Below are positions 1,270 through 63,400 of a DNA stretch of 64,000 bases, piece by piece; within the stretch, counting starts at the first letter, position 1, and each line of letters opens with the position of its first letter. A program made the position numbers and the translations under genes. The notes beneath the pieces are model-generated. The model had not been told where the DNA came from. It saw nothing but the letters and a program-made list of their open reading frames with translations, and did no database searches. Origin of the DNA: Bombyx mori (taxonomy: Eukaryota; Arthropoda; Insecta; Lepidoptera; Bombycidae); NCBI RefSeq assembly GCF_030269925.1, contig NC_085119.1, forward strand, positions 15,349,001-15,413,000. The letters are read 5' to 3'.

Positions 1270-1424
1270 TGGACACAAATCATTTTAAAAATATGTGACA
1301 AATTTGTGAAAATAAGTAGTTGTTTGTTTGTTTATCACAAAATTTTAATGAACGAAATTTCGATATTCTGTTATAAAGAATATAAAGACACTTTTAGTAC
1401 GGTATATAAAATTTTCAAGTTTTT

Positions 1425-1806
1425 GGAACGAAGCTCCTTAAGAGACGATGCGGAGGGGTACCCGAACCGGGAAAAGACGTCCGTAACGTAAGATTTTTAT
1501 TATTTATGTATAGTCTTAGTATGGTGGCTATACAGTCTCTAATGTATAGTCTACGTGATGACGGTTATTATTATTTTTCATATAAATAGCTGTTTCTTTG
1601 TATATTATAATTATATATTTTTTATGAATCATTGTGAATAAAATAAAGTTGATAATTTTGTAGAGTAGTTTTTTTTATCAATAAAAAAAAAATTATAAAA
1701 AAATTATACCCGAATAATTATTTTCTTTATACCTCGAATAGAACTTAAAATTCATATTTTTTAAATAAGGAACTTCGTTCCTATCCGGTGTCCCACGACA
1801 CCACAC
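1425..1806. mobile_element. Unclassified repeat with palindromic ends, copy 1
   Basis: The left end GGAACGAAGCTCCTTA and the right end AAGGAACTTCGTTCC are near-perfect inverted repeats, and each is close to palindromic itself. About 70 bases at the left (GATGCGGAGGGGTACCC...AACGTCCGTAACGTAAGA) and about 130 at the right (CCCGAATAATTATTTTCTTT...TATCCGGTGTC) are shared with the second copy at 43474-43904. The middle differs: here it is AT-rich with no recognisable RNA. It could be a MITE-like DNA transposon; no transposase was seen. Confidence 0.5.
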
Positions 1807-1814
1807 ATCTTTTT

Positions 1815-2620
1815 TTTTTTTTTTTTCGACACATAGACAAAGACCTGAAAGCATATATTTCCTATAGACAGAATGATGCCGAATCGACAATGAGCGTGCT
1901 CATAAAACGTCATCGCAAATGAGACTTCTTCGTTTGTTGTTACTGAAATGCGAAGCGTCCCCTCAAACAGTACGTACGCAGTAATCTTCTTGAAGGCCTG
2001 AAATAAAAGTGGCTGGAGATTTCCTTAATTAAAGGTTTGAACAACCTCTTTGATGTCATTGGGGGAACGGAAAAAAAAATTGGAAACTGGAAATTCTTCG
2101 ATGTCGCCGCCTCTTCATTGGAACCCGTGAATTTTGATGAGTTTTCAATGTATTTTTAAAGGTAAATATTGAGTGAATTCGATGCTCCCTCGTCGCTAAT
2201 GAATCCGTATCAGATATTTTATTCAAACTCTCCGAAAAATAAGCTACCTAATAAGTAACAAAAAATGCAGAAAAAAAAATTATAACCTTTTTATTTACCA
2301 CGGTGTTCGATTATTTTATCTTATGATATGGTATGAATTTGGGTTGAAGAACGTTCGTATATATGCCACGTTATATATTTATTACGTGCACCTACGAGAA
2401 TAATAGTTCTGTGGTAATTTAATTAAATGCCATTGGCCTTTTTATTTTAAAAAAAAGTTTTGTTACGACATTATGCTAATCATGGTTGGATCGGCTCTAC
2501 TTAAACGATAGACAATCTTTCGAACTCAAATTCTCACCAGCAAAGCGAATTTAACCTGTAAATTGAAACACAAAAAATATTTGCAGATTCTATTAAAATT
2601 CCCAAGATATGTATTAATAT
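1815..2620. other. Gene-free AT-rich spacer
   Basis: No supported gene. On the minus strand an AATAAA lies near 2289-2294, about 330 bases beyond the proposed stop of the small secreted-protein gene upstream, and could be its polyadenylation signal. Confidence 0.4.
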
Positions 2621-14249: not shown

Positions 14250-17000
14250 GATCATCATCATCATCATTTCAGCCTGTCTGCTGTCCACTGCTGAACATAG
14301 GCCTCTCCAACTGATGTCCAGTGCGGCCGGTCCGTTGCCACCTGCATCCAACGTGACCCAGCAATTTTCACCAGGTCGTCGGTCCATCTGGTAGGTGGCC
14401 GTCCCACACTGCGTTTGCCAGTACGTGGTCTCCACTCGAGGATCTTTCTGCCCCATCGGCCGTCCGATCTTCGCGCTATGTGGCCAGCCCACTGCCACTT
14501 CAGCTTGCTAATCCTACGGGCTATGTCAGCAACTTTGGTTCTTCTACGGATCTCCTCATTTCTGATTCGATTTCGTAGAGAAATACCCAGCATAGCCCTC
14601 TCCATAGCTCGCTGCGCGACACTAAGCTTCCTGAAAAGATCCCTTGTGAAGCACCACGTCTCGGAACCGTAAGTCATCACTGGCAACACACATTGGTTGT
14701 ACACCTTTGTCTTTAGACACTGAGGGATTTTGGACGAGAACACATTTCTTAATTTACCGAACGCTGCCCAGCCGAGTTGGATCCGCCTACTGACCTCTCT
14801 CTCAAAGTTGGACTTACCTAATCGGACTACCTGTCCCAGGTATATATAGTCGTCTACGACTTCAAGAGTAGAGTTCCCAACGGTAACTGCGGTGGGCTTA
14901 ATATGGACATTGAACATGATTTTCGTTTTATCCATATTCATTTTAAGGCCCACTCGTTGAGAAACTTTATTGAGGTCTCCGAGCATCTGTCCCAAATCTT
15001 CCAGCGACTCAGCCATGACTACTATATCGTCAGCAAATCGAAGGTGTGTGATGTATTCGCCGTTTATATTGATGCCAAATCCTTGTCATTCCAGAAGCTT
15101 GAAGGAATCCTCTAAGGCAGCGGTAAACAGTTTCGGGGATATGACATCTCCCTGTCTAACTCCTCTTTTAAGCGTGATTTCCTTCGTGGAATGCTCCTGT
15201 ACTCGGACTGACATTGTGGCGTTATTATACAAGTACTTCAACACCTCGACATACCGATAGTCAATACGGCATCGCTGGAGAGATCTAAGGACCGCCCAAG
15301 TTTCGACAGAATCAAAGGCCTTTTCATAGTCCACAAACGCCAAGCATATGGGCCGATTATACTCTTCGGTCTTTTGTATAATCTGCCGCAGCGTATGTAT
15401 GTGGTCTATGGTGCTAAAGCCTTTTCGGAAACCGGCTTGTTCGATAGGCTGAAAGTCATCGAGCCTGCGTTCGAGACGGTTCGTGATGACTCTCGAGAAC
15501 AGCTTATAGACATGGCTCAGCAGTGTTATGGGCCTGTAGTTCTTCAATAAGGATTTGTCGCCTTTTTTGAAAAACAAAACCACAACACCCCTGTTCCATG
15601 CCTCCGACGTTTTCCCTTTGAGCAAGGAGGAATTAAATAGCTTCTGAAGGACTTTCAGTACCGGCGTCCCGCCCGCTTTCAAAAGCTCTGTGGTGATTCC
15701 ATCCTCGCCCGGCGCCTTGTTGTTCTTGAGCTGTTTGAGGGCCATCCTAATCTCGTACAGGCTGATGTCCGGGATATCCTCGGTATAGTGTCGGGTTAAC
15801 TTGGCTCTAGGGTCTGTAACCGAGCTTGCAGGCTCATTGGATATCGAGGTGTATAACTGCCCATAAAATCTTTCTATCTCCCGTAGCACCTCGGCCTTAT
15901 TCGACGTTACACATCCATCTTCGGTTTTCAGATTTGTCAAGTGGCTCTGCCCAATAGACACGTCTCTTGCAAAGACTCTGGAGCCTTGGTTCCGCTCAAT
16001 AGTTTCCTTAATACGTTGTGTATTAAAGGAGCGTAGGTCGTGTCGCATGGACTTCGTGATTTGTCTATTGAGCTGCCTATATGACTCAGCTTCCTCAGAA
16101 GTTTGGAGTGTCATAGAACGTCGGCTAGCCATGAGGTTCCGGGTGTAGTCAGATAATTTTTGAGGTCTATTTTTGCGGTGGGCTTTAAAATACTTAGACC
16201 CTACCGTATGGACAGTTTCCACCAGCCTGCTGTAGATATCATCCACTAATAACTTGCTGTCTAGTCCTTCGAAGCGATTAGATAATTCGAGTTGAAAACT
16301 CTCGGGGTTCTGAATATGTGCATTTGGTGGTCGGAGCGTGGACTTCATCAGACGCGATCTTTCCAATCTGACATTAATACTCAATATGGCCCTTACAATT
16401 CGGTGATCGCTTCCGGTTTTTACTCTATGGATCACAGAGACATCGTTGAATATCTGTCTACTGGTGCTCATGATGAAATCGATTTCATTTTTGGTTACAC
16501 CGTCGGGACTCATCCAGGTCCATTTCCTGTGAGGCGGCTTCTGGAAGAAAGAATTCATCATATAGAGTCCTTCTTTCTCCAGAAAGTCAGCCAACCTCTG
16601 TCCTCTGGAGTTCCGCTGCCCATATCCAAACTGACCCACTTTCAACTCATCATTGCTTCTACAACCCAGCTTTGCATTAAAGTCTCCCATAACAACAGTA
16701 AAATGTGTTTTGGAGCTATGTATGGCCCTACTGACGTTCTCATACAAAGCTTCTACCTCATCGTCTGGGTGTGTCTGAGTGGGAGCGTAAACCTGTATGA
16801 CCTTCAATGAATATCGTTACGATATTCTGAGTATCAGGCACGCTACCCTATTCGAGACGCTCCCGACGGACACAATGTTGTTCACGAGAGACTTGTGGAC
16901 GATAAAACCAACACCACCTTGGGACTTCTGCTCTCCCTCTCGGTATGGTTGTCTCAATATTATACTCATAATTAACATGAAGATCGGATCCGAGAACTCT
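14250..17000 (-). mobile_element. RTE-type LINE, almost complete, 5'-truncated, inactivated
   Basis: The minus strand carries endonuclease and reverse transcriptase in one frame, ending at a (GAT)n tail (14252-14266), the tail type of RTE elements. The 5' boundary is fuzzy near 17000, inside the endonuclease, so the first part of the protein is missing. Two in-frame stops interrupt the ORF. No target duplication could be matched. Confidence 0.85.
14264..16960 (-). pseudogene. RTE ORF2 (endonuclease-reverse transcriptase) with two in-frame stops
   Basis: Read continuously on the minus strand: the endonuclease shows GGVGFIVHKSL, QVYAPTQTHPDDEVE, VMGDFNAKLG, NEIDFIMS and GSDHRIVRA. The RT shows KGDKSLLKNYRPITLLSHVY, QAGFRKGFSTIDHIH, FVDYEKAFDSVE (motif A), RGVRQGDVISPKLF and, after the second stop, LRFADDIVVMAE (catalytic FADD box). 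The C-terminal part includes WQWAGHIARR and ends WTADRLK. Stops are a TAA at about 16816-16818 and a TGA at 15086-15088, the latter just before the FADD box; both keep the frame, so they are simple point mutations. Main open pieces are 15086-16807 and 14264-15085. Not capable of making full-length protein. Confidence 0.9.
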
Positions 17001-25704: not shown

Positions 25705-25920
25705 AAAGAGGTACTGTAGGTCTGCATGGATAATTACCATCATTCTGCATATTATGCGTTCCTGTTTGAAGGATGGGATGGCCTGTTTGAGACTTGAAAC
25801 TCCATATCTCAAGGTGGTAGGTGTCGGCATTGACATTTTGATGTCTATGGTATGGTCGTCTATAGTCAGGAAGCGTCAGATCTCAGCTGGTTCATCAGCT
25901 GGTTCGCCCGACGGCGTAAT
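25705..25920 (+). mobile_element. Bm1 SINE, strongly diverged
   Basis: GGTACTGTAGGTCTGCATGG, GCGTTCCTGTTTGAAGGATG and CATATCTCAAGGTGGTAGG keep Bm1 order; the 3' part is disrupted. Confidence 0.6.
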
Positions 25921-26127
25921 AAATAAATAAAATAGAATAGAAAATCGAAAATTTCCTGTTAGCAGACGAGTATATCAAGAAAACATCGCAATGCCCAGGG
26001 GACAAGACGCCATCCGTGAAGAGCGAGACGGGTTATGTGTAATTTCTTTAATTTCTTTTTATTTATACACCCTTACACCGTAGAAAGTATACTTCAATCA
26101 ACTTGGAATAATTTATCTCGCGTTCAC

Positions 26128-28785: not shown

Positions 28786-29229
28786 CTAGCGACCCGCCCT
28801 CGCTTCGCTTCAGAAACTGCAATTTATTATTGATTTCTCCACTATTTAATGGATGTTATTATACCTATTATATATATTTCCGTTTCCGGTAGTCGTGTCG
28901 TAAACATCGCTGTGTATCTGTTCGTTATTAAAAACATAAAAGTGTATACTTGGAGGTGAAATCCCGCAGGCAAGCTGCATCCCAGTATTAAGGAAAGTGA
29001 CACTGAGTATTTCTAAACTAAATTCGTGGCACAAAACCTGGAATTAACGATATTGTGAACAAAACCTGGATATTTAGAGGTTAAAACTTATAAAGATTTT
29101 ATGTTGGTACTACAGATTTCGTTGTCAAACTGTCTGCTGTCAAATACGAAATTCGATAGTGACAGTTAGTATAGAGTTGCCAAGATATCATTTTGACTAT
29201 TACCATTACGTTCCATTACACGTATAAAT

Positions 29230-29976
29230 ATGGAAGAACAATTTCAACTCTTATTCGATAAAATGAAAATTGAGATGAAAAATCAATCTGAATCCATAAC
29301 CAATACCATAATGAACAAAATGGATGAGAAATTAAAACCTATTTTAGAGGAAAATAAATACTTAAAATTAAAAGTAGAGAACTTGGAAAAGAAAATCGAA
29401 ATTTTAGAGAGAGATAAGAAAACTAACAATATAATAATCCATGGATTGACAGAAGACGAGAAATCGACACCCGAGCTTATCGACAAGGTCAAAGATACAA
29501 TAACAAAAGAATTAGGCATAGCAATCGAAAATTATGAATTCAACAAAATATATCGTATTGGTAAAACAAACAAAGGTAATCCATCAAAGGTAATCCGACC
29601 TATACTAATATGCTTGACTACTGGATGGAAAAAAGCGGAAATATTGAAAAATAAGAGAAAGTTAAAAGACCTGCATATCACGGAAGATTACTCTAAAGAA
29701 ACCTTAGAAAAACGTAAGGCTTTACTACCACAACTCATGGAAGAACGGAGAAAAGGTAATTTCGCCTATTTAAGATATGATAAACTAATAATTAAAGAAA
29801 ATAAATACGTCAAGGACTCGAGGAAGAGAGAACTCTCAATTTCACCACAAACAAACTCTCAATCCAAAAAAATTCAACCTTCAACTTCAGCCAAGAATAA
29901 CAGAACGAATGCATTCGATTTGATGAGAGGTCGGTCTAACTCTTTCACAACATTGACGACAGGTCAAAAACAATAG
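29230..29976 (+). CDS. LINE ORF1 protein, coiled-coil RNA-binding type
   Basis: 248 residues from an ATG in good context. Residues 1-65 form a predicted coiled coil (heptads through MKNQSESITNTIMNKMDEKL and ENKYLKLKVENLEKKIEILE). TNNIIIHGL at about 66-74 looks like the start of an RRM-like domain. A C-terminal domain follows (ITEDYSKETLEKRKALLPQL, then GNFAYLRYDKLIIKEN). This is the L1 ORF1p / transposase-22 layout: a nucleic-acid-binding chaperone that coats the element RNA. The Ser/Asn-rich tail is probably disordered. It lies 123 bases upstream of the ORF2 ATG, in the same direction, with no overlap. Confidence 0.85.
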   Translation: MEEQFQLLFDKMKIEMKNQSESITNTIMNKMDEKLKPILEENKYLKLKVENLEKKIEILERDKKTNNIIIHGLTEDEKSTPELIDKVKDTITKELGIAIENYEFNKIYRIGKTNKGNPSKVIRPILICLTTGWKKAEILKNKRKLKDLHITEDYSKETLEKRKALLPQLMEERRKGNFAYLRYDKLIIKENKYVKDSRKRELSISPQTNSQSKKIQPSTSAKNNRTNAFDLMRGRSNSFTTLTTGQKQ

Positions 29977-30099
29977 CAACGAGTTATCGACGGACGGAAA
30001 AAGGAACTAACATATGAATATAAAAGAAAAACAATAGAAACAAAAACAACTCTCCCAAGCCGATTGGTCTTCGTGGGGGAGAATGACCAACACCCTCTA

Positions 30100-32934
30100 A
30101 TGGAAAAGAAGAGATTTTTAGATATACACATAGCCACTTTTAACGCAAGATCATTAAGAACTCCTGAAAAACTTCAAGAACTTGAATTAGCTTTATCAGA
30201 TATAAAATGGGATATAATAGGAATAAGTGAAATGAGAAGATATGGAGAAGGAATTGAAGACTATGGAAACTTTATTTTACACTATAAAGGCGAGACACCA
30301 GGGCTCTACGGAGTCGGCTTTCTTGTAAAAAAAGGACTTGCCGAGAAAATAGGAGAAATCAAAGGTGTCTCAGAGAGAATAGCAGTTTTAAACATTGAGT
30401 TACCAGTCAAAAATGCTGAAAAATGGTCTATAATTCAAGCTTATTCTCCAACAGAATCGAACAAGAAAGATGACATAAGGAAAATAGAAAAATTCTATGA
30501 AGATTTACATCTTACCATTGAAAATTCGCATAAAAATATAATTGTCATGGGTGATTTTAACGGTCAGATAGGAAAGCGCAATAACTTTGGAGAAGAATAC
30601 ACTATAGGACTGTATGGCTCAGGCAAAAGAACTAATAACGGAGAGAGATTAGTGACTTTTGCCTTACAACATAAACTCAGTATTCTTAATAGTTTTTTCA
30701 AAAAGAAGAAAAACAAAAAATGGACATGGACATCCCCAAATGGCATTCATAAAAACGAAATCGATTTTGTCATGTCAAATAATCCTAAGTTTTTCAAGGA
30801 TGTGTCAATTATCCACAACTTAAATTTCCACTCTGATCATAAAATGGTCCGTGCTGCATTGACTGGGATACCTATGAAAAGGACAAGGAAGTATCTTATC
30901 AATAATTCAAGGATAGTGTGTACGGGAGAAAGCGAAGCACTCTCAGCGAATCTCAAATTATTGGCAAAGAACCAACACTTCAATAAAGATTTATCCATTG
31001 AAGAAAAATACAATAAGTTCATACAAATATTAAAAGAAGCGACAAGAAAGACTAATACAGAAGATAATAGAGCGATTTCAAAACAAACACAGGAACTACT
31101 TCAAGAAAGGAAAAACCTCATTAAAGGAAAGGAGGATAAATACAAAATATCAGAAATTAGTAAGAAAATAAATGAACAAATTAGAAAAGATAGAAAAATT
31201 AAACGGGACAACACTATGAAAAAACACATAGAGAAGACAGGTGGAATTAAAAAGGCTATAAAAGAACTAACAGTAAAAAAGGACTGGATGCCAAAAGTAA
31301 AGACTGACAAAAATAACTACACTTGTAAACGACCAGAAATACTGGAGTTGGCTACAGATTATTACAAGAAACTATATAAAAGCAACAAGAGCGGAAGAGC
31401 TCAAATAAATGAACTAGAATCTGTAGGAACTAATATCACACCTACAATTTTGACGGAGGAAACAATGAAAGCAATCAATTCTCAAAAAATAGACAAAACT
31501 CCTGGATCTGACCAAATAACCAACGAACTACTAAAATCGGTTGCATCGACCATTGCCCCGATATTGACTGAACTGTTTAATGACATTATTGAGACTGAAG
31601 ATATACCCACCGATTGGACAAAATCAACTATAATTTTATTACACAAAAAGGGAGACAAAGGAGACATTGGAAATTATCGCCCAATTAGTTTGATGTCCAA
31701 TGTGTATAAAGTATTTTCTAAAATTATACTCTCGCGAATTACAACTACACTTGATGAAAACCAACCAAAGGAACAAGCCGGCTTTAGAAGCAAATTTTCA
31801 ACGATAGATCACATACACGTTGTAAGACAAATCATACAAAAATACAAAGAATACAATAAATCCTTTTATGTAGGATTCGTTGATTTTAATAAAGCCTTCG
31901 ATTCTCTAGAACATTCATTTATTTGGCAAGCACTACAGAGTCAAGGAGTGGAGGCCAAATTCATAAAAATTCTTCAAAACATATATTGTGGAAGTGTAGC
32001 ACAAGTGCGGCTTGAAAAAACTGGTAGACAATTCCCAATAGAACGAGGGGTTCGTCAAGGAGACCCTATATCGCCTAAGCTATTTACGGCTGTTTTGGAG
32101 AACATATTCCGGAATATAAATTGGGAAAAAAATGGCATTAACATCAACGGTGAAAATCTCAACCATTTAAGATTTGCGGACGATCTGGTCCTCTTTTCTG
32201 AATGCCCGGAAAAACTGCAGCATATGCTACAAGAACTGTCAGATCAAAGTGCAAAAGCAGGGCTATCGATGAATACCGCTAAGACCAAAATTATGACCAA
32301 TTCTACGAAGACCTATAATATCACCGTTAACAACGAAAAAATCGAATATGTGGAAGAGTATGTTTACCTGGGGCAGTTAATATCGCCAAGTGACACTATG
32401 CAAAAAGAGATCGATCGGAGAATAGCCAATACTTGGAAGAGATACTGGTCCCTCAGTGAAATAATGAAAAATAAAGATATGCCTATGAAAGACAAACGAA
32501 AAGTATACAATACGTGCATTCTACCATGCCTGATCTATGGATGCCAGACATGGGCATTGACAAAAAAACAATTAAATAAAATAAACATATGTCAGAACAA
32601 TATAGAAAGAAGTATCACTGGAATTAAGAGAAAAGATAAAATTAGACTAACATACGTAAAAAATATAACAAAATTAAAAAGCGTCGAAAAGGTACATAAA
32701 ATGCAAAAGTGGAGATGGGCAGGACATATGTTAAGAGAGACACAAGAAAAGTGGACAAAGAATGTAACGGAATGGTACCCAAGAGATGGCCATAGAAGTA
32801 AAGGCAGAAAAAATCAAAGATGGGAAGATGATTTCAAAAGAATAGCTGGCGGAGAGTGGCTGAGAAAGTCAAAGGACAGAACCTTGTGGAAAACATTAGA
32901 GGAGGCCTATGTCGAGAGACAAGCTGTTTCCTAG
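30100..32934 (+). CDS. LINE ORF2: apurinic-type endonuclease and reverse transcriptase
   Basis: 944 residues from ATG at 30100; the frame is open from 30064 via a TTG, but ATG is the likely start. The N-terminal endonuclease (about 1-235) has TFNARSLRTPEKL, the catalytic Glu in GISEMRRYGEG, YSPTESNKKDD, VMGDFNGQIG (about 148-157), NEIDFVMS and the SDHKMVRA His box. The reverse transcriptase (about 490-740) has HKKGDKGDIGNYRPISLMSN, QAGFRSKFSTIDHIHVV, VDFNKAFDSLEH (motif A), RGVRQGDPISPKLFTAVLE and LRFADDLVLF (FADD about 692-695). The C-terminal part includes KWRWAGHMLRETQ and ends RQAVS. All catalytic residues I can check are present and there is no frameshift. It nicks the target and primes cDNA synthesis there. 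No RNase H was seen. Confidence 0.93.
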   Translation: MEKKRFLDIHIATFNARSLRTPEKLQELELALSDIKWDIIGISEMRRYGEGIEDYGNFILHYKGETPGLYGVGFLVKKGLAEKIGEIKGVSERIAVLNIELPVKNAEKWSIIQAYSPTESNKKDDIRKIEKFYEDLHLTIENSHKNIIVMGDFNGQIGKRNNFGEEYTIGLYGSGKRTNNGERLVTFALQHKLSILNSFFKKKKNKKWTWTSPNGIHKNEIDFVMSNNPKFFKDVSIIHNLNFHSDHKMVRAALTGIPMKRTRKYLINNSRIVCTGESEALSANLKLLAKNQHFNKDLSIEEKYNKFIQILKEATRKTNTEDNRAISKQTQELLQERKNLIKGKEDKYKISEISKKINEQIRKDRKIKRDNTMKKHIEKTGGIKKAIKELTVKKDWMPKVKTDKNNYTCKRPEILELATDYYKKLYKSNKSGRAQINELESVGTNITPTILTEETMKAINSQKIDKTPGSDQITNELLKSVASTIAPILTELFNDIIETEDIPTDWTKSTIILLHKKGDKGDIGNYRPISLMSNVYKVFSKIILSRITTTLDENQPKEQAGFRSKFSTIDHIHVVRQIIQKYKEYNKSFYVGFVDFNKAFDSLEHSFIWQALQSQGVEAKFIKILQNIYCGSVAQVRLEKTGRQFPIERGVRQGDPISPKLFTAVLENIFRNINWEKNGININGENLNHLRFADDLVLFSECPEKLQHMLQELSDQSAKAGLSMNTAKTKIMTNSTKTYNITVNNEKIEYVEEYVYLGQLISPSDTMQKEIDRRIANTWKRYWSLSEIMKNKDMPMKDKRKVYNTCILPCLIYGCQTWALTKKQLNKINICQNNIERSITGIKRKDKIRLTYVKNITKLKSVEKVHKMQKWRWAGHMLRETQEKWTKNVTEWYPRDGHRSKGRKNQRWEDDFKRIAGGEWLRKSKDRTLWKTLEEAYVERQAVS

Positions 32935-42960: not shown

Positions 42961-43473
42961 ATTCCAATGATTTTTACTTATTTTATTTTTTACTGATTAG
43001 AGTATATTCGTTTTTTAAAGCATAGAGCAGTCAGCTATGTGATTTAGCTTCCACATATAATATTCTACTAACTACTAATACCTTACAGTATATTTATTAA
43101 CATGTTTATCTAACAACAAAACACATTCGAGCCATTAAAATCGTCAATAGCCCAGCTATTCTGCGTCCATACGCCACAAATGATTTACCAATATCCGGGG
43201 ACTAAAAGCGACTCCTACTATAAAACCGGCTTCCTTGAAACGGACCAAGAAAAATGAGGTAATACTGCATTACTCACTGTGCTAACACTAGTGCTTTTAA
43301 CATAATGGATGTAAGCCATTACAGTGCCTTCGTTGTTCTGGAACTTTTCAAACACACTGCTGACTTTGTTTTATGTATGATAATTACATTTTGTTAACAT
43401 TTCGTGGTTTATGTGTTGATGTAAAGATTTTATTAGCTTAAGTTTTATAGAGTGAAATACTTAGTTGATTTTT

Positions 43474-43904
43474 GGAACGAAGTTCCTGATGGCACGATGC
43501 GGAGGGGTACCCTAATCGGGAAAAACGTCCGTAACGTAAGATTTTTTCTATTTAGTTTGTTATCAACAGATGTCGCTGCACGTAAATTCAACAATTCCTG
43601 AATAGCAGTGACGAGATGTTACACAGTTGATAGACGTTCTCGTATTTCTCTTGCTAAATCATACTTACCTGGCATAGGGGATACCGTGATCATGCAGGCG
43701 GTTCCCCCCAGGGCGAAGCTGCTCCATTGCACTGCGGAGTGGTTGACCCTTGCGATTATTTTTATTTTTATCAATAAAAAAATTATAATAGAAAATGTAT
43801 GTAGACCCGAATAATTATTTTCTTTTATACCTCGAATCGAACTTTAATTTAATATTTTTATAATGAGGAATTTCGTTCCTATCCGGTGTCGTACGACCCC
43901 ACAC
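43474..43904. mobile_element. Repeat with palindromic ends, copy 2, carrying a U1 snRNA segment
   Basis: The left end GGAACGAAGTTCCTGATGG and the right end GAGGAATTTCGTTCCTATCC pair as inverted repeats and correspond to the copy at 1425-1806. The shared left part runs to about 43545 and the shared right part resumes near 43763. Between them lie 217 bases not found in copy 1, including the U1-like sequence. Confidence 0.55.
43661..43760 (+). ncRNA. U1 snRNA 5' two-thirds, truncated (pseudogene or captured copy)
   Basis: U1 pairs with 5' splice sites. The sequence starts ATACTTACCTGGC, the invariant 5' splice-site-recognition end of U1. It continues through stem-loop I with the U1-70K-type loop (GATCATGCAGG) and stem-loop II with the U1A-binding loop (CATTGCACTGCGGAG), then GTTGACCCTTGCGATTATT. 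It stops at about nucleotide 100 of the usual ~164: stem-loop III, the Sm site and stem-loop IV are missing and T-rich repeat sequence follows. It therefore cannot form a normal snRNP. The matching part is very well preserved. No polymerase II snRNA promoter element could be confirmed upstream. Identification is from known U1 sequence. Confidence 0.85.
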
Positions 43905-43909
43905 TTTTT

Positions 43910-44320
43910 TTATTGACAAATTGTATTGTGAAAAAACTTACTTAGATTTTATTGAAGGGAAATTTGATAAAAAGCTTTAACCGTAGACAATAGCCGCGGC
44001 TTAGCTATACCTTTGTACCTTTGGCGTTACCAATGTTCAGGACCGTCGGTGATCAAAGAGGACTAGGATGAATTTTGACTTCCATAGAAATCATTGATAC
44101 ACCAAAACAGTCTTGAAGACAATGAAAATCTTAATCAATCTATTCAGCCCTCTAATTAACATCCACCATAATCTACTTGATCTAAAATAGAATCTTGCCT
44201 ATAGACAGGAATAGACATCGAATAGCTTAAAGCATTTCAATGTACATATTCTGTACCGATATAAAATCATAGAAAGCCGTGAATAAAGAAGGATGCTAAA
44301 AATACCACATTTTTATATAT
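43910..44320. other. Gene-free spacer
   Basis: Nothing recognised. Confidence 0.5.
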
Positions 44321-44327
44321 TATAATA

Positions 44328-44667
44328 GGTTGGGGAAAAAGTCTTTTCGCATTATAGTATGTATGAACTTGTAATAAAATCTCTTTGGTTATACTATTTG
44401 TATCTGGCTGATTTTGATATCATTAAAAGTTTAAATTTTAAAGAAGATAATTCCTAAGTCAAATTAGGAAAATGTGTGATTTTTATTTATTTTTCGTACT
44501 GTCAAGATGAGTGAATCTAATGAAGAAATTCGATACATTTTAAAATTTTACTACAAAAAAGTTATCGAACAAAATGGTACCTACAAACTTTAGTTAAATG
44601 TAAATAAACTATATTAAAAAATGTTGTGAATATTCTTAAAAAATGCGAAGAAACTTTTTCCCCAAAC
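44328..44667 (+). mobile_element. Internally deleted mariner-type transposon
   Basis: Terminal inverted repeats GGTTGGGGAAAAAGTC...TTCGCATT (44328-44352) and its complement AATGCGAAGAAACTTTTTCC at the right, with the TA target duplicated on both sides. ATG at 44507 begins MSESNEEIRYILKFYYKK, a mariner-like transposase N-terminus. This frame passes straight into VIEQNGTYKL and a stop, which looks like the transposase C-terminus, so about 1 kb including the catalytic domain was lost, apparently in frame. Non-autonomous but its ends look mobilisable in principle (inference). Confidence 0.8.
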
Positions 44668-44674
44668 TATTTAT

Positions 44675-45525
44675 TAATTGTAATATACGTGTAAATATGT
44701 CATAATATCTATGTCAATAGATATTTAAAAGCATAATAAAAAAGTATTGCATATATGTTACATATAATATGCTTAGGCAGGTAAGACATAAAGTTATGAT
44801 ATGATTATTCATTAAAGATAATTTATAGATGTGATGTAATTTATTTGCGCAACTTATGCAAAAGAAAAATGTCTTCCCTAAGGATTTGATTTGATCCCTA
44901 AGGATTGAACTATGCCCATATATATCAGACGAAAATTACATTAGCATGTTAATACAATGATTTTTTCTGCAGAAGCGTTCATGGCTAAATTTGTGTTAAA
45001 AAGGCGTGGATATAGTCCAAAATCCATTGGTGTTAACATTGTGATACTTTAATAGGCATGAGATCCAAATAATATATTATTTAGTTTAAAAAAATTTAGA
45101 AAATCAGAATGACTGCTTTTGTAACAGAGATACACAGGATGGTAGTTTCTGTGGTAGGTAAATATGCGAAATCGTATTAACTATGGTACCTTACCGAGAA
45201 TTGTGTTTTTTTTTTATAGCATCGGTTTTTATTACATGATTATTCAAATATGTGCTTTCATCTTAACTTCATAAGATTCATATCCCGGCATGGTCACGTC
45301 ATCCGATATTATAGCACCAGATATCTTACACAACAGACTAACTCAGGAATATTAGAAGCGTGGCTTGGTCCAGATTTAAACGTTACGGTTCTCAACATAA
45401 AATATATCTCGGCTTCAAATTGTATATAATAATTGATGAACGTTAGCTTGCAGACCAGATATTACATAGAAAATTCTGTTTTTAGTAGTACAGGACGAAT
45501 TACTTGAGGCATTTTAAATATTCAA
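44675..45525. other. Gene-free AT-rich spacer
   Basis: Nothing recognised. Confidence 0.5.
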
Positions 45526-45526
45526 G

Positions 45527-45803
45527 AAATCGAACCCGCAAAATTATAATTTGCGTAATTACTGGTGGTAGGACCTCTTGTGAGTCCGCACGGGTGCGTA
45601 CCACCACCGTCTATTTCTGCCGTAAAGCAGTAATGCGTTTCGGTTTAAAGGGTGGGGCAGCCGTTGTAACTATACTGAGACCTTAGAACTTATATCTCAA
45701 GGTACGTGGCGCATTTACGTCATAGATTTCTATGGGCTACAGTAGCCGCTTAACACCAGGTAGGCTGTGAGCTCGTCCACCCATCCAAGCAATAAAAAAA
45801 AAA
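45527..45803 (+). mobile_element. Bm1 SINE, 5'-truncated in the linker
   Basis: Starts AATCGAACCCGCAAAATTAT, runs through GCGTAATTACTGGTGGTAGG and ends CCAAGCAATAAAAAAAA. Little diverged. Confidence 0.9.
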
Positions 45804-45809
45804 GATTAA

Positions 45810-47120
45810 GGTGCTTATTTTGACATGCATGTCTGTCGCGACCAGAAGAAAACGAAACCTGAGTAGTACTATTATTTTGACATATACTAATTTAATACCC
45901 TTTCAAATCCTATTGCTTCTCTTATAAAAGAACATTTCTCCTACATTTTTTTAAGAAAGAACCAAGTACTACACAAAAATCCGTCCAAGGATTCGTACGA
46001 TCTTATTTTCTTAATATTCGATACGTTTCTAACCCTTTTAAAGGAAAAATACCCTTCTACAAGCCGCAAGAAGTTCACTCATCCGTATTAGATTGGTGAG
46101 CTCTTGTTATTGAAATCCTTACAGGTAAAATCTATTAGAAGATTACTTCCAAAGGGAGGAAACGTGTGTTCACACTGGGAAACAATGCATGCTATGTAGA
46201 GGTGACGTCAAACGAGAACCCGGATTAAGAATTTATTTATTTATTTTAGAAGCGCAGTTACCATTTAAGCGACCTCATAGTAATAGTAGTCAAAGTAATA
46301 ATTATGATATATATAGTATATATTATGATGTAATAATAAGATTGAGAAAAAAAAAATCAGTAAAAATAATAATAAAATAAATTAATAATAATAATTAAGA
46401 TGTAGTTTTCGATCTCTGACCGAAAATAAATTATAATGTATTTTTTATAGATAATTAATTAGTGCTGATTAATTTAGACAATTTTAAAATAGTGTCTTAT
46501 ATAGGGAAGGCGATCCTAATTAAGAAATTTATGGAGATTCGGTGTGAATCCGCGTTGTAGACACTGCCTTTGTAATTCAAGGATTATATTTGCGACCATT
46601 GATCCACGGATAAATTTAGAAGAGTACCACAGCTACTCACTATTGGCGAAAAATTATTTTACCTTAAAAATTATAAAACTACTGATTACGACATATTACT
46701 GATGGTGACGCATTCTCTATTTATAATTTCAACTCTAAAGCTCCACAATTTCCTTTAAATGATCAATAACATTATTTTACTTGATTTAAAAACCATATAA
46801 AAGTGATAATTGGACTATTTGAATAGTATAGTAAAAAACAAATAAATGGTATTTTTGATTATTTTATTAGAACAGAATATAGTGTACGCGCAATATAACA
46901 AAAGAAAAAGCCTTACTTTTTCGCATTTCGAATAAAAATCCCGGTTTTTTTTTTACTTTGAAATACTCTTATCTTCGCCCCGTAATTATATTTGTTGACA
47001 TTTTGTTACAGAAGGGAAGCCTAGAAACGTTGGATTTAAGGTTTAATAAACTAAACGCTTTGCTTTGAATAGATATTGGAATTCAATAGGTAGTTAGTAT
47101 TTCCTATCGATTAACAAATT
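45810..47120. other. Gene-free AT-rich spacer
   Basis: No supported gene; only short low-complexity ORFs. Confidence 0.5.
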
Positions 47121-60469: not shown

Positions 60470-63400
60470 TTGTTATAGTGTATTAAACACTGCCACGCCT
60501 GGGAAGACGGCAGGACACACTCCGGCGAGGTGGGCAACAATCGGCCGGAGCGTTGGGGACTATTGGGAGAGAAACCGGCGAACTATACGGGCATTATCGA
60601 GCAAGACTGCCTTTTGCATTTGGGCCACCACCGACTTTTTGTTGAGACCAAGCCTCTCGAGATGTTTTGAGAGGCTTTTAGGGACCAAACCATTCACCGA
60701 CACAACTACCGGGATTATTTCTGTAGATACCACCCTCCACATGTCGGTCACCTCGTGCGCCAGGTCCAAATATTTGGTCTTTTTATCTGCCTCGACCCGC
60801 ACGAGGTTCTCGTCGTAGGGGATGGTGATATCCACCAGAAATACCCGAGACTCCGTCCGGTCCATCAGCACGATATCAGGCTTATTCGCAAGAATAGTCC
60901 TGTCCGTAATGATGGGCCGGTCCCAGTAGAGCTTGGCACGGTCGTTTTCGAGTACAGCGTCCGGCTGGTACTTATAATACGGTAGCCTCTGTTCGATGAG
61001 GCCATACTTAAGGGCGAGCTCTTGGTGGAGGATTCTGGCTGCTTGGTTATGTCTGTGCAAGTACTCAGTGTTAGCAAGCATAGAACAACCAGAGGTGACA
61101 TGTCTGAGGGATTCACCCGGTCGGCGGCATAATCGACAGATGTCAGCTGTCCCATCCCTCAGAATGTGCTTCCTATAGTTGTTCGTCCTGATAACCTGAT
61201 CCTGTATTGCACAGACAAAACCCTCGGTTTCCCCAAAGAGGTCACCGAATCGCAGCCAGTGCACGGAGGCTTCTTTGTCCACGTGGGGCTCATGCAGTGC
61301 CTGAAAGAAGCGTCCGTGCAGCTCTTTCCCTTTCCATATGGCCTCACGGTCAGAGGTACTGAGTACCGCCGGTGATTGCCACCCGTCTCTGGCCAGGGCT
61401 AGCGGGGTCAGTCCTTTGTCGCATTCCATGACCTCTCTGTGCATCACACTGTCAGCCCTCGATAGGAAATATTCCCTGAGACTGCACACCCCACTGTTGT
61501 GCATGACCTTGGCGCTAAGTAGGCCCCGGCCACCACACTTCCGCGGAATGTACAATCTCATTACCGAGGACTTCGGGTGGAGCATCCTATGGAGGGTCAT
61601 AATTGAGCGGACTTTTCTATCCAGGGCATCCAGTTCGGTCTGAGTCCACCTGAGCACGCCGAAGGTATACAACAGGACGGGCATCGCCCAGCCGTTAAAC
61701 GCCCTTGTCTTATTCACGCCCGACAAAAGGCTCTTACACACTTTTGTCAAACGTTCATAAAACACGTCGCATGCAGCCTGTTTGACGACCGCCACGTCAA
61801 TACCTAAATTTTGCGACATGCCCAGGTACCGGTATGTTTCTCCCTCGGAGAGTGCCCGAAGGTTTATCCCATCGGATACAGGTAAACGATCCGATGAGAC
61901 TATGCTCCCTCTCTCTACATGGACAACCGCACACTTGTCGACTCCCAGCCTCATCCTAATGCGACTACTGAAATCACAAGTGATGTCAAGCAGTCGCCTG
62001 AGGCCTGCAGCATGAGGAGCGTACAACTTGAGGTCATCCATGTAGAACAAGTGGGACACCTTCAAGCCCCCCCTTCGGAACTGAAAGCCTGTCCTCGAAG
62101 CCTCCAGTAATGAACTGAGAGGATTCAGGGCCAGGCAAAACCACAATGGACTCAGACAATCACCCTGAAATATACCCCGATTCACCTTTATTCGGTCTTC
62201 TACAGCCGACAGCCGCACACCGGATAGACTAAGCATTGTACTCCATTGCCCCATACAGGCACCGAGGAAGTCTCGAACTGTATCGTCTATCTTATACAGC
62301 TCGAGGACCCTCTTCAGCCATGTATGGGGGACCGAGTCAAATGCCTTTTTATAATCTATCCAGGCGGCAGAGAAATTTCGTCGGTTGCGTTTGACCTGCT
62401 GGCCAGCTACCGCGTCGATCAAGAGGAGTTCCTTAGTACCGCGGCTACCACGCCTACACCCGTTCTGGGCACCAGACAGTACTCGACAGCTGTCTATGTG
62501 GTGTGAGATCTTAGTTTCCAGAACGGATGTCAGTGTCTTATAGGTGGTAGGAAGACACGTTATTGGCCGGTACTATGCCGGATCCGCGGTACTTTCCGAT
62601 TTTGGAATGAGGTGAGTGATCCCAGTAGTGAGGAAGGCGGGGAGCACTTTTGTATCTAGGGCTTCCTGGAACTGTCTGGCGAGGGTTTCGTGACAAGCCC
62701 GGAAACTTTTTAGCCAGTAAAGCTGCAGTCCGTCGCAGCCTGGAGACTTCCAGTGTGAAGAACTACAGACTGCAGCCTTAATATCACCTTTGCTGATAGT
62801 AACCGGGCTCATCGGTGGTATGCCCGCACACGAGTCCTCAATGACCTGCATCCAGGAGCCCTCCACATGCTCCACAGGTCTTGACCACAAGTTGCGCCAG
62901 AATGTGACCATCTCCTGTCCAGCTGGACGTTCGGTGACGGCGCTAACATTGGCCTGTTCTAGGGACCTGTAGAACTTCCTCTGATCACTCACGAAGAGGC
63001 GATTCTGGCGATACCTTTGAACTCGTTCCGAGTACCGCCGGATGCGCTTGCTCCAAGCAGCCACCTTCTGCTTCAGGAGGTCTATGCGATCTGCCAGCTG
63101 TTGTGCATTTGGCACTGCAGGGCCTAAGCCACACCTCGCAAACGCAATTCTGACAAACCGCAAGACTCTCGGCCTCGTGTTGCCCGTCCTGAAGCTAATC
63201 AGTTTGCCGATAAGGACTCTAGCGTCACTGATACGACGTTCAATTCTGCGCTTCCAAGCAGGCTCGGCTTCTCTCACACGCTGAGCGTCGGCAGCTGTCA
63301 CCTGCCGATTTGGCTGGAGCTTGGCGCCGATATACCGACATACTGCCATTGCGGCGCCAAACAGGATTGAATTCGTATCAGTGAGGCTGCTGCTGTTCTC

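What the first reader, a model, noticed from the sequence alone, without database searches (positions are those of the whole stretch)
43661..43760. Truncated U1 snRNA sequence embedded in an interspersed repeat
Seen: the first ~100 nt of U1 (ATACTTACCTG end, stem-loops I and II with the U1-70K and U1A loop sequences) are almost intact, then stop; the Sm site is lost. They lie between the conserved left and right parts of a repeat whose other copy (1425-1806) has an unrelated middle. Inference: a mobile element has captured, or been inserted by, a U1 retrocopy; or this is a U1-derived composite repeat. A free RNA with intact 5' splice-site, 70K and U1A determinants but no Sm site could act as a decoy if transcribed.
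Basis: partly seen in the sequence, partly recalled or inferred. Interest (0 to 1): 0.75.

Follow-up and report, generated by a model that had tools for sequence, protein, structure and literature searches.

The report
Truncated dead U1 copy inside repeat
A broken copy of the first 100 letters of the splicing RNA U1 sits in the middle of one copy of a short genomic repeat; it looks like an ordinary dead pseudogene, and whether a mobile element is spreading it could not be tested.

Summary
Window 43661-43760 (+) matches U1 snRNA from nt 1 to about nt 97-100 (Rfam RF00003, E 5.4e-15 for the window, 69.0 bits against a gathering score of 69.5). The 5' splice-site sequence, stem-loops I and II and the U1A loop are kept; the U1-70K loop has a change at a conserved base; Sm site and 3' half are absent. 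It lies between 43469-43554 and 43762-43914, which match 1420-1506 (88.5%) and 1669-1816 (83.0%) of a second repeat copy with an unrelated middle. Corrections: the insert is about 207 bp, of which U1 is only half, after 106 bp of unknown origin; and the decoy idea is weak. Most likely it is an ordinary dead 3'-truncated U1 pseudogene nested in an older repeat. A retrocopy is slightly favoured over DNA capture, but no target-site duplication abuts it and the break is not where mammalian copies usually break. The decisive comparison with other genomic copies and true U1 genes could not be made: 21 of 21 genome searches did not complete.

The parts
43469..43554 (+). Left shared part of the repeat; begins TTTTTGGAACGAAGTTCC (palindrome 43474-43486)
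   Evidence: BLASTN 88.5% over 87 columns to 1420-1506; alignment; palindrome
43555..43660 (+). 106 bp of unknown origin before U1; could be the middle of this repeat copy or U1 gene flank; no recognisable PSEA
43661..43760 (+). U1 snRNA nt 1 to about 97-100: 5' splice-site sequence, stem-loops I and II, first bases of stem-loop III; 3' truncated
   Evidence: Rfam RF00003 E 4.7e-17, E 5.4e-15 whole window; pairwise alignment
43762..43914 (+). Right shared part of the repeat; contains GGAATTTCGTTCC (43867-43879) and a palindrome near its end (43885-43900), followed by a T run
   Evidence: BLASTN 83.0% over 153 columns to 1669-1816; palindrome
1420..1816 (+). Second copy of the repeat, with an unrelated AT-rich middle (about 1508-1672) and no U1; 16-nt inverted repeats 1425-1440 / 1766-1781 (94%)
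   Evidence: inverted repeats

Best explanation
A dead, 3'-truncated U1 pseudogene nested in the middle of one copy of an older short interspersed repeat. Most likely a LINE reverse transcriptase took a U1 RNA, started internally near the foot of stem-loop III on an AT-rich target, copied to the RNA's 5' end and inserted the cDNA in the AT-rich middle of the repeat, where it decayed. It has no function of its own: no Sm site, no U1 3' end, no demonstrable promoter. Shown: U1 identity, start at nt 1, 3' truncation, nesting between two shared repeat parts, absence of U1 in the other clear copy. Inferred: the RNA route, the order of events and the lack of expression.
For: The match begins at U1 nt 1 and ends near nt 97-100, as expected of a cDNA that reached the RNA's 5' end; the 3' break lies in AT-rich sequence that the repeat continues (GATTATT / TTATTTTTAT), so microhomology is possible. 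In mammals 65% of the snRNA copies studied are 3'-truncated and show homology at the 3' junction (PMC4476161, section 8). LINE sequences are in the window (RVT_1 in 3 of the 4 ORFs scanned, of 23 listed). One of two clear repeat copies carries U1, as for a private event.
Against: No target-site duplication abuts U1: the longest shared word between its flanks is TATTT, five bases and not at the ends, while 70-100% of mammalian truncated copies have one. Mammalian truncations fall almost always in single-stranded, purine-rich segments; this break lies in the 5' arm of stem-loop III by the Rfam structure and in U-rich sequence. In genomes with stringent LINEs, e.g. platypus, processed snRNA copies are rare (PMC4476161, passage); the LINEs here were not typed. 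A 7-base direct repeat TTATCAA flanks the whole 208-bp unit, which would suit insertion of U1 with its 5' flank, though it is within chance (80, 232 and 425 of 1000 shuffles for three choices of stretches). Wholly different middles are also what an element that captures host DNA would show. The 106 bp before U1 are unexplained.
Confidence: 0.5

Rival explanations
1. DNA-level capture: the repeat is a DNA transposon with fixed ends and variable middles (like Helitron or Pack-type elements) that took up a piece of a U1 gene, promoter and first 100 nt, by microhomology-mediated repair.
For: Ends conserved and colinear, middles unrelated; inverted repeats near the ends of the other copy, 16 nt at 94%; 106 bp of non-repeat sequence precede U1 as a promoter would; a 7-nt direct repeat flanks the whole unit.
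Against: The 106 bp show no significant fly U1 or Bombyx U6 PSEA match (motifs from memory); the 7-nt repeat is not above chance; only two clear copies are known here; the ends do not look like Helitron ends (criteria recalled, not run).
Confidence: 0.25
2. U1-carrying composite repeat family: the U1 segment is a fixed part of a subfamily of this repeat and is spread with it, as U1/U2 heads are in SINEU elements.
For: snRNA-headed SINEs exist (Kojima 2015, recalled and seen only as cited in PMC8010984); stem-loops I and II are well kept.
Against: One of two clear repeat copies in the window has U1 and no second U1 reaches E 0.05 in 64 kb; U1 lies in the middle, not at an end. Genome copies untested.
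Confidence: 0.12
3. U1 gene broken by a U1-targeting transposon of the Dada kind: the break falls on the U1 site (GCGATT) that zebrafish Dada-U1 elements use (GCGAAT/GCGAAC).
For: Break at GCGATT 43752-43757; Dada-U1 target and TSD as in PMC3706591 (passages).
Against: No second GCGA(A/T)(T/C) on the + strand between 43600 and 46000 and no GTGCAAT between 43500 and 44200; no U1 3' half found in the window; the sequence right of the break also occurs at 1669-1816 without U1. A Dada element can be longer than the stretch searched for the TSD.
Confidence: 0.03
4. Functional decoy: an expressed short RNA with the U1 5' end that binds 5' splice sites and U1 proteins without assembling a snRNP.
For: 5' splice-site sequence and U1A loop intact; both hairpin loops form in the predicted fold.
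Against: The fold is only modestly better than shuffles (z -1.34, 19 of 200 as good) and pairs nt 8-12 of the splice-site end; 70K loop altered; U1 deleted of its Sm site is degraded (PMC10801842, passages); no promoter shown.
Confidence: 0.03

Closest known systems
3'-truncated snRNA pseudogenes of mammals (PMC4476161; classes of Denison and Weiner as cited there)
   Same: Starts at snRNA nt 1, 3'-truncated, possible junction microhomology
   Different: No abutting target-site duplication found; break in a stem and in U-rich sequence; insect-like host; lies inside another repeat with 106 bp of unknown sequence before it
SINEU (U1/U2-headed SINEs; recalled, and cited in PMC8010984)
   Same: U1 5' sequence within an interspersed repeat
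   Different: U1 is not at the repeat's end; one of two clear window copies carries it; multi-copy spread untested
Dada-U1 DNA transposons (PMC3706591, PMC8869645, passages)
   Same: Junction at the same U1 site (GCGATT)
   Different: No TSD partner or subterminal GTGCAAT in the stretches searched, no U1 3' half found; a transposase was not sought (4 of 23 listed ORFs were scanned)
snRNA/LINE chimeras by template switching (PMC4476161, PMC13174262, passages)
   Same: snRNA joined to a repeat
   Different: The repeat lies on both sides of U1, and it has not been shown to be a LINE

Membership tests
Dispersed 3'-truncated snRNA pseudogene | Significant snRNA homology | tested here: met
   RF00003, E 5.4e-15 in 64 kb
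Dispersed 3'-truncated snRNA pseudogene | Starts at snRNA nt 1 and lacks the 3' part, Sm site included | tested here: met
   43661 = nt 1, ends about nt 97-100; no 3' half found in window
Dispersed 3'-truncated snRNA pseudogene | Not at a functional U1 locus | not testable with these tools
   Genome unreachable; true U1 genes of the species not seen
LINE-mobilised retrocopy | Target-site duplication abutting the copy (70-100% of mammalian truncated copies) | tested here: not met
   Longest shared word TATTT, not at the ends; hence the RNA route is an inference, not a filing
LINE-mobilised retrocopy | Truncation in a single-stranded purine-rich segment with homology to the target | tested here: inconclusive
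   Homology possible (GATTATT meets TTATTTTTAT), but the break is in the 5' arm of stem-loop III and U-rich; no empty site is known
SINEU-like U1-headed SINE | U1 at the 5' end of the repeat unit | tested here: not met
   192 bp (86 bp shared part plus 106 bp) lie between the repeat start 43469 and U1
SINEU-like U1-headed SINE | Many copies with the same U1 junction | not testable with these tools
   The genome search unanswered 21 of 21; 1 of 2 clear window copies has U1
Dada-U1 insertion | 6-bp TSD GCGAAT-like on both sides | tested here: not met
   Only one GCGA(A/T)(T/C) on the + strand in 43600-46000; not searched further out
Dada-U1 insertion | Subterminal GTGCAAT and U1 3' half beyond the element | tested here: not met
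   No GTGCAAT in 43500-44200; no U1 3' half in the window
DNA transposon that captures host DNA | Fixed ends with variable middles in many copies | tested here: inconclusive
   Seen for two of two clear window copies; more copies unreachable
DNA transposon that captures host DNA | Captured part includes the gene's own flank (U1 promoter) | tested here: inconclusive
   No significant PSEA match with motifs from memory; true lepidopteran U1 promoters not available

The most novel reading that the evidence does not exclude
A lepidopteran repeat family with fixed ends has taken up the 5' half of a U1 gene with its promoter and spreads it as an Sm-less U1 module through the genome.
Probability: 0.1. 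Interest if true: 0.6.

Novelty: new member of a known kind. Interest (0 to 1): 0.2.

Why it matters
If it is a lone dead copy, it adds one insect example to a pattern that the papers seen here describe in mammals and other vertebrates, and matters little. If the junction proved to be repeated across the genome, it would be a U1-carrying mobile element in an insect and a natural source of Sm-less U1 RNA, which would be worth an experiment.

Tried and rejected
Full-length or functional U1: rejected, no Sm site or 3' half. Dada-U1 insertion: the break is at the right U1 site but TSD and subterminal repeat are missing in the stretches searched, and the 3' half is missing. U1 flanked by its own TSD: none of 6 or more bases. 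TTATCAA as TSD of the whole unit: within chance (80, 232 and 425 of 1000 shuffles for three choices of stretches). snRNA promoter in the 106 bp: no support. tRNA genes in the window: none by ARAGORN with the bacterial code. More copies in public collections: three patterns from the repeat and one from U1 gave 0 stretches in viral contigs (4 of 8 scans used); one pattern in genome contigs gave 6 stretches, 6 of 6 in bacterial records by title and taken as chance without further reading. Papers: 9 searches; none of the titles listed describes a U1-carrying repeat in Lepidoptera, but searches listed 20 of 22 and 15 of 74 papers, one search found 0, and the library holds open-licence papers only.

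Full report
What is there. Position 43661 (+) is nucleotide 1 of a U1 snRNA sequence. Rfam's U1 model gives 69.0 bits, E 4.7e-17 on 551 bases and E 5.4e-15 on the whole 64 kb window, where it is the only match at E 0.05 or better. At Rfam's gathering cut-off of 69.5 it is not listed, which is what a truncated copy would do. I judge the alignment convincing to about model position 98. By my reading of the pair line, 23 of 24 pairs of stem-loops I and II are standard. The 5' splice-site sequence and the ATTGCAC loop are kept; the 70K loop has a conserved A changed to C. The last matching bases, GCGATT(ATT), are the start of stem-loop III. The Sm site and stem-loop IV are absent, and no U1 3' half was found elsewhere in the window (the BLAST part used a 3' half from memory, and its 6 hits were 10 bases each, E 2.6).

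The repeat. The left flank 43469-43554 matches 1420-1506 (88.5% over 87 columns) and the right flank 43762-43914 matches 1669-1816 (83.0% over 153 columns), in the same order and orientation. These are the two clear copies (patterns: 2 matches each against 0.01 and 0.09 expected). One search also lists short weak matches, mostly AT-rich (best E 0.002 at 25919-25945, not examined); of the left-part ones looked at, that near 38397-38369 (-) could be a remnant of a third left end. The copy at 1420-1816 has 16-nt inverted repeats near its ends (94%). Its middle shows no similarity to the 104 bp 43557-43660. So the 207 bp between the shared parts in the U1 copy are 106 bp of unknown sequence followed by about 100 nt of U1. 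I could not name the repeat family; T runs beside both ends leave its own target duplication unclear.

How it most likely arose. An RNA-derived copy can start exactly at nt 1 and be 3'-truncated. PMC4476161 (passages; section 8) reports that 65% of the mammalian snRNA copies studied are 3'-truncated, that truncation falls almost always in short single-stranded, purine-rich segments with homology to the target, and that 70-100% of truncated copies have target duplications. The present copy shares the start, the truncation and possible junction homology. It lacks an abutting target duplication, and its break is in the 5' arm of stem-loop III and U-rich, which speaks against the mammalian route; the same paper finds such copies rare where LINEs are stringent (platypus) but present in a lizard with several LINE clades (passages). 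A 7-nt repeat, TTATCAA, flanks the whole 208-bp unit, but 80, 232 and 425 of 1000 dinucleotide shuffles of three choices of stretches do as well. The retrocopy route is therefore a preferred inference at 0.5, not a demonstrated fact. DNA-level capture by an element with fixed ends and variable middles is a real rival (0.25). It predicts that the 106 bp are a U1 gene flank. The PSEA motifs I had (from memory) do not show it: 909 of 1728 and 1342 of 1728 sampled 100-mers of the window score as well. Lepidopteran U1 promoters were not available, so this test is weak.

A coincidence worth telling. The U1 break falls on GCGATT, the site in U1 at which zebrafish Dada-U1 transposons insert (GCGAAT/GCGAAC; PMC3706591, passages; PMC8869645, passages). 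The diagnostic features of such an insertion were not found (no second site copy on the + strand in 43600-46000, no GTGCAAT in 43500-44200, no U1 3' half), and the sequence right of the break occurs without U1 in the other repeat copy. I treat it as chance.

Function. I find no case for a decoy. The RNA fold is only slightly better than shuffles (z -1.34, 19 of 200 as good) and pairs nt 8-12 of the splice-site end, the 70K loop is changed, and U1 RNA deleted of its Sm site is reported to be degraded (PMC10801842, passages). Expression could not be tested.

Limits. The comparison with the rest of the genome was not possible: 21 of 21 genome-search runs were unanswered (listed in Tried and rejected). 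PMC8190105 (passages) reports 2-31 U1 copies per haploid genome in the ten species it measured by qPCR, B. mori among them, so the comparison with true U1 genes would be small and quick.

Noticed in passing
43752-43757: The U1 break coincides with the Dada-U1 insertion site of zebrafish U1 genes (GCGAAT/GCGAAC), without the other Dada features sought.
   Followed up: yes
43767-43920: The right repeat part of the U1 copy is flanked by a 16-nt AT-rich inverted repeat (94%) that the other copy shows only weakly.
   Followed up: no
38397-38369 (-): AACGAAGTTCCTGAT...ATGCGG resembles the repeat's left end; possible remnant of a third copy.
   Followed up: partly
44324-44671: A short element with 30-nt terminal inverted repeats, 90% complementary; mariner-MITE-like by recall.
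   Followed up: partly
29197-32934 (+): Probable LINE with two long open frames, 259 aa (no Pfam match) and 985 aa with endonuclease and reverse transcriptase domains.
   Followed up: partly
60560-62572 (-): 670-aa open frame with a reverse transcriptase domain.
   Followed up: partly
14264-16816 (-): Probable LINE broken over two frames: 15086-16816 has endonuclease and part of a reverse transcriptase domain; 14264-15085 was listed but not scanned.
   Followed up: partly
1508-1672: Unrelated AT-rich middle of the other repeat copy; origin unknown.
   Followed up: partly
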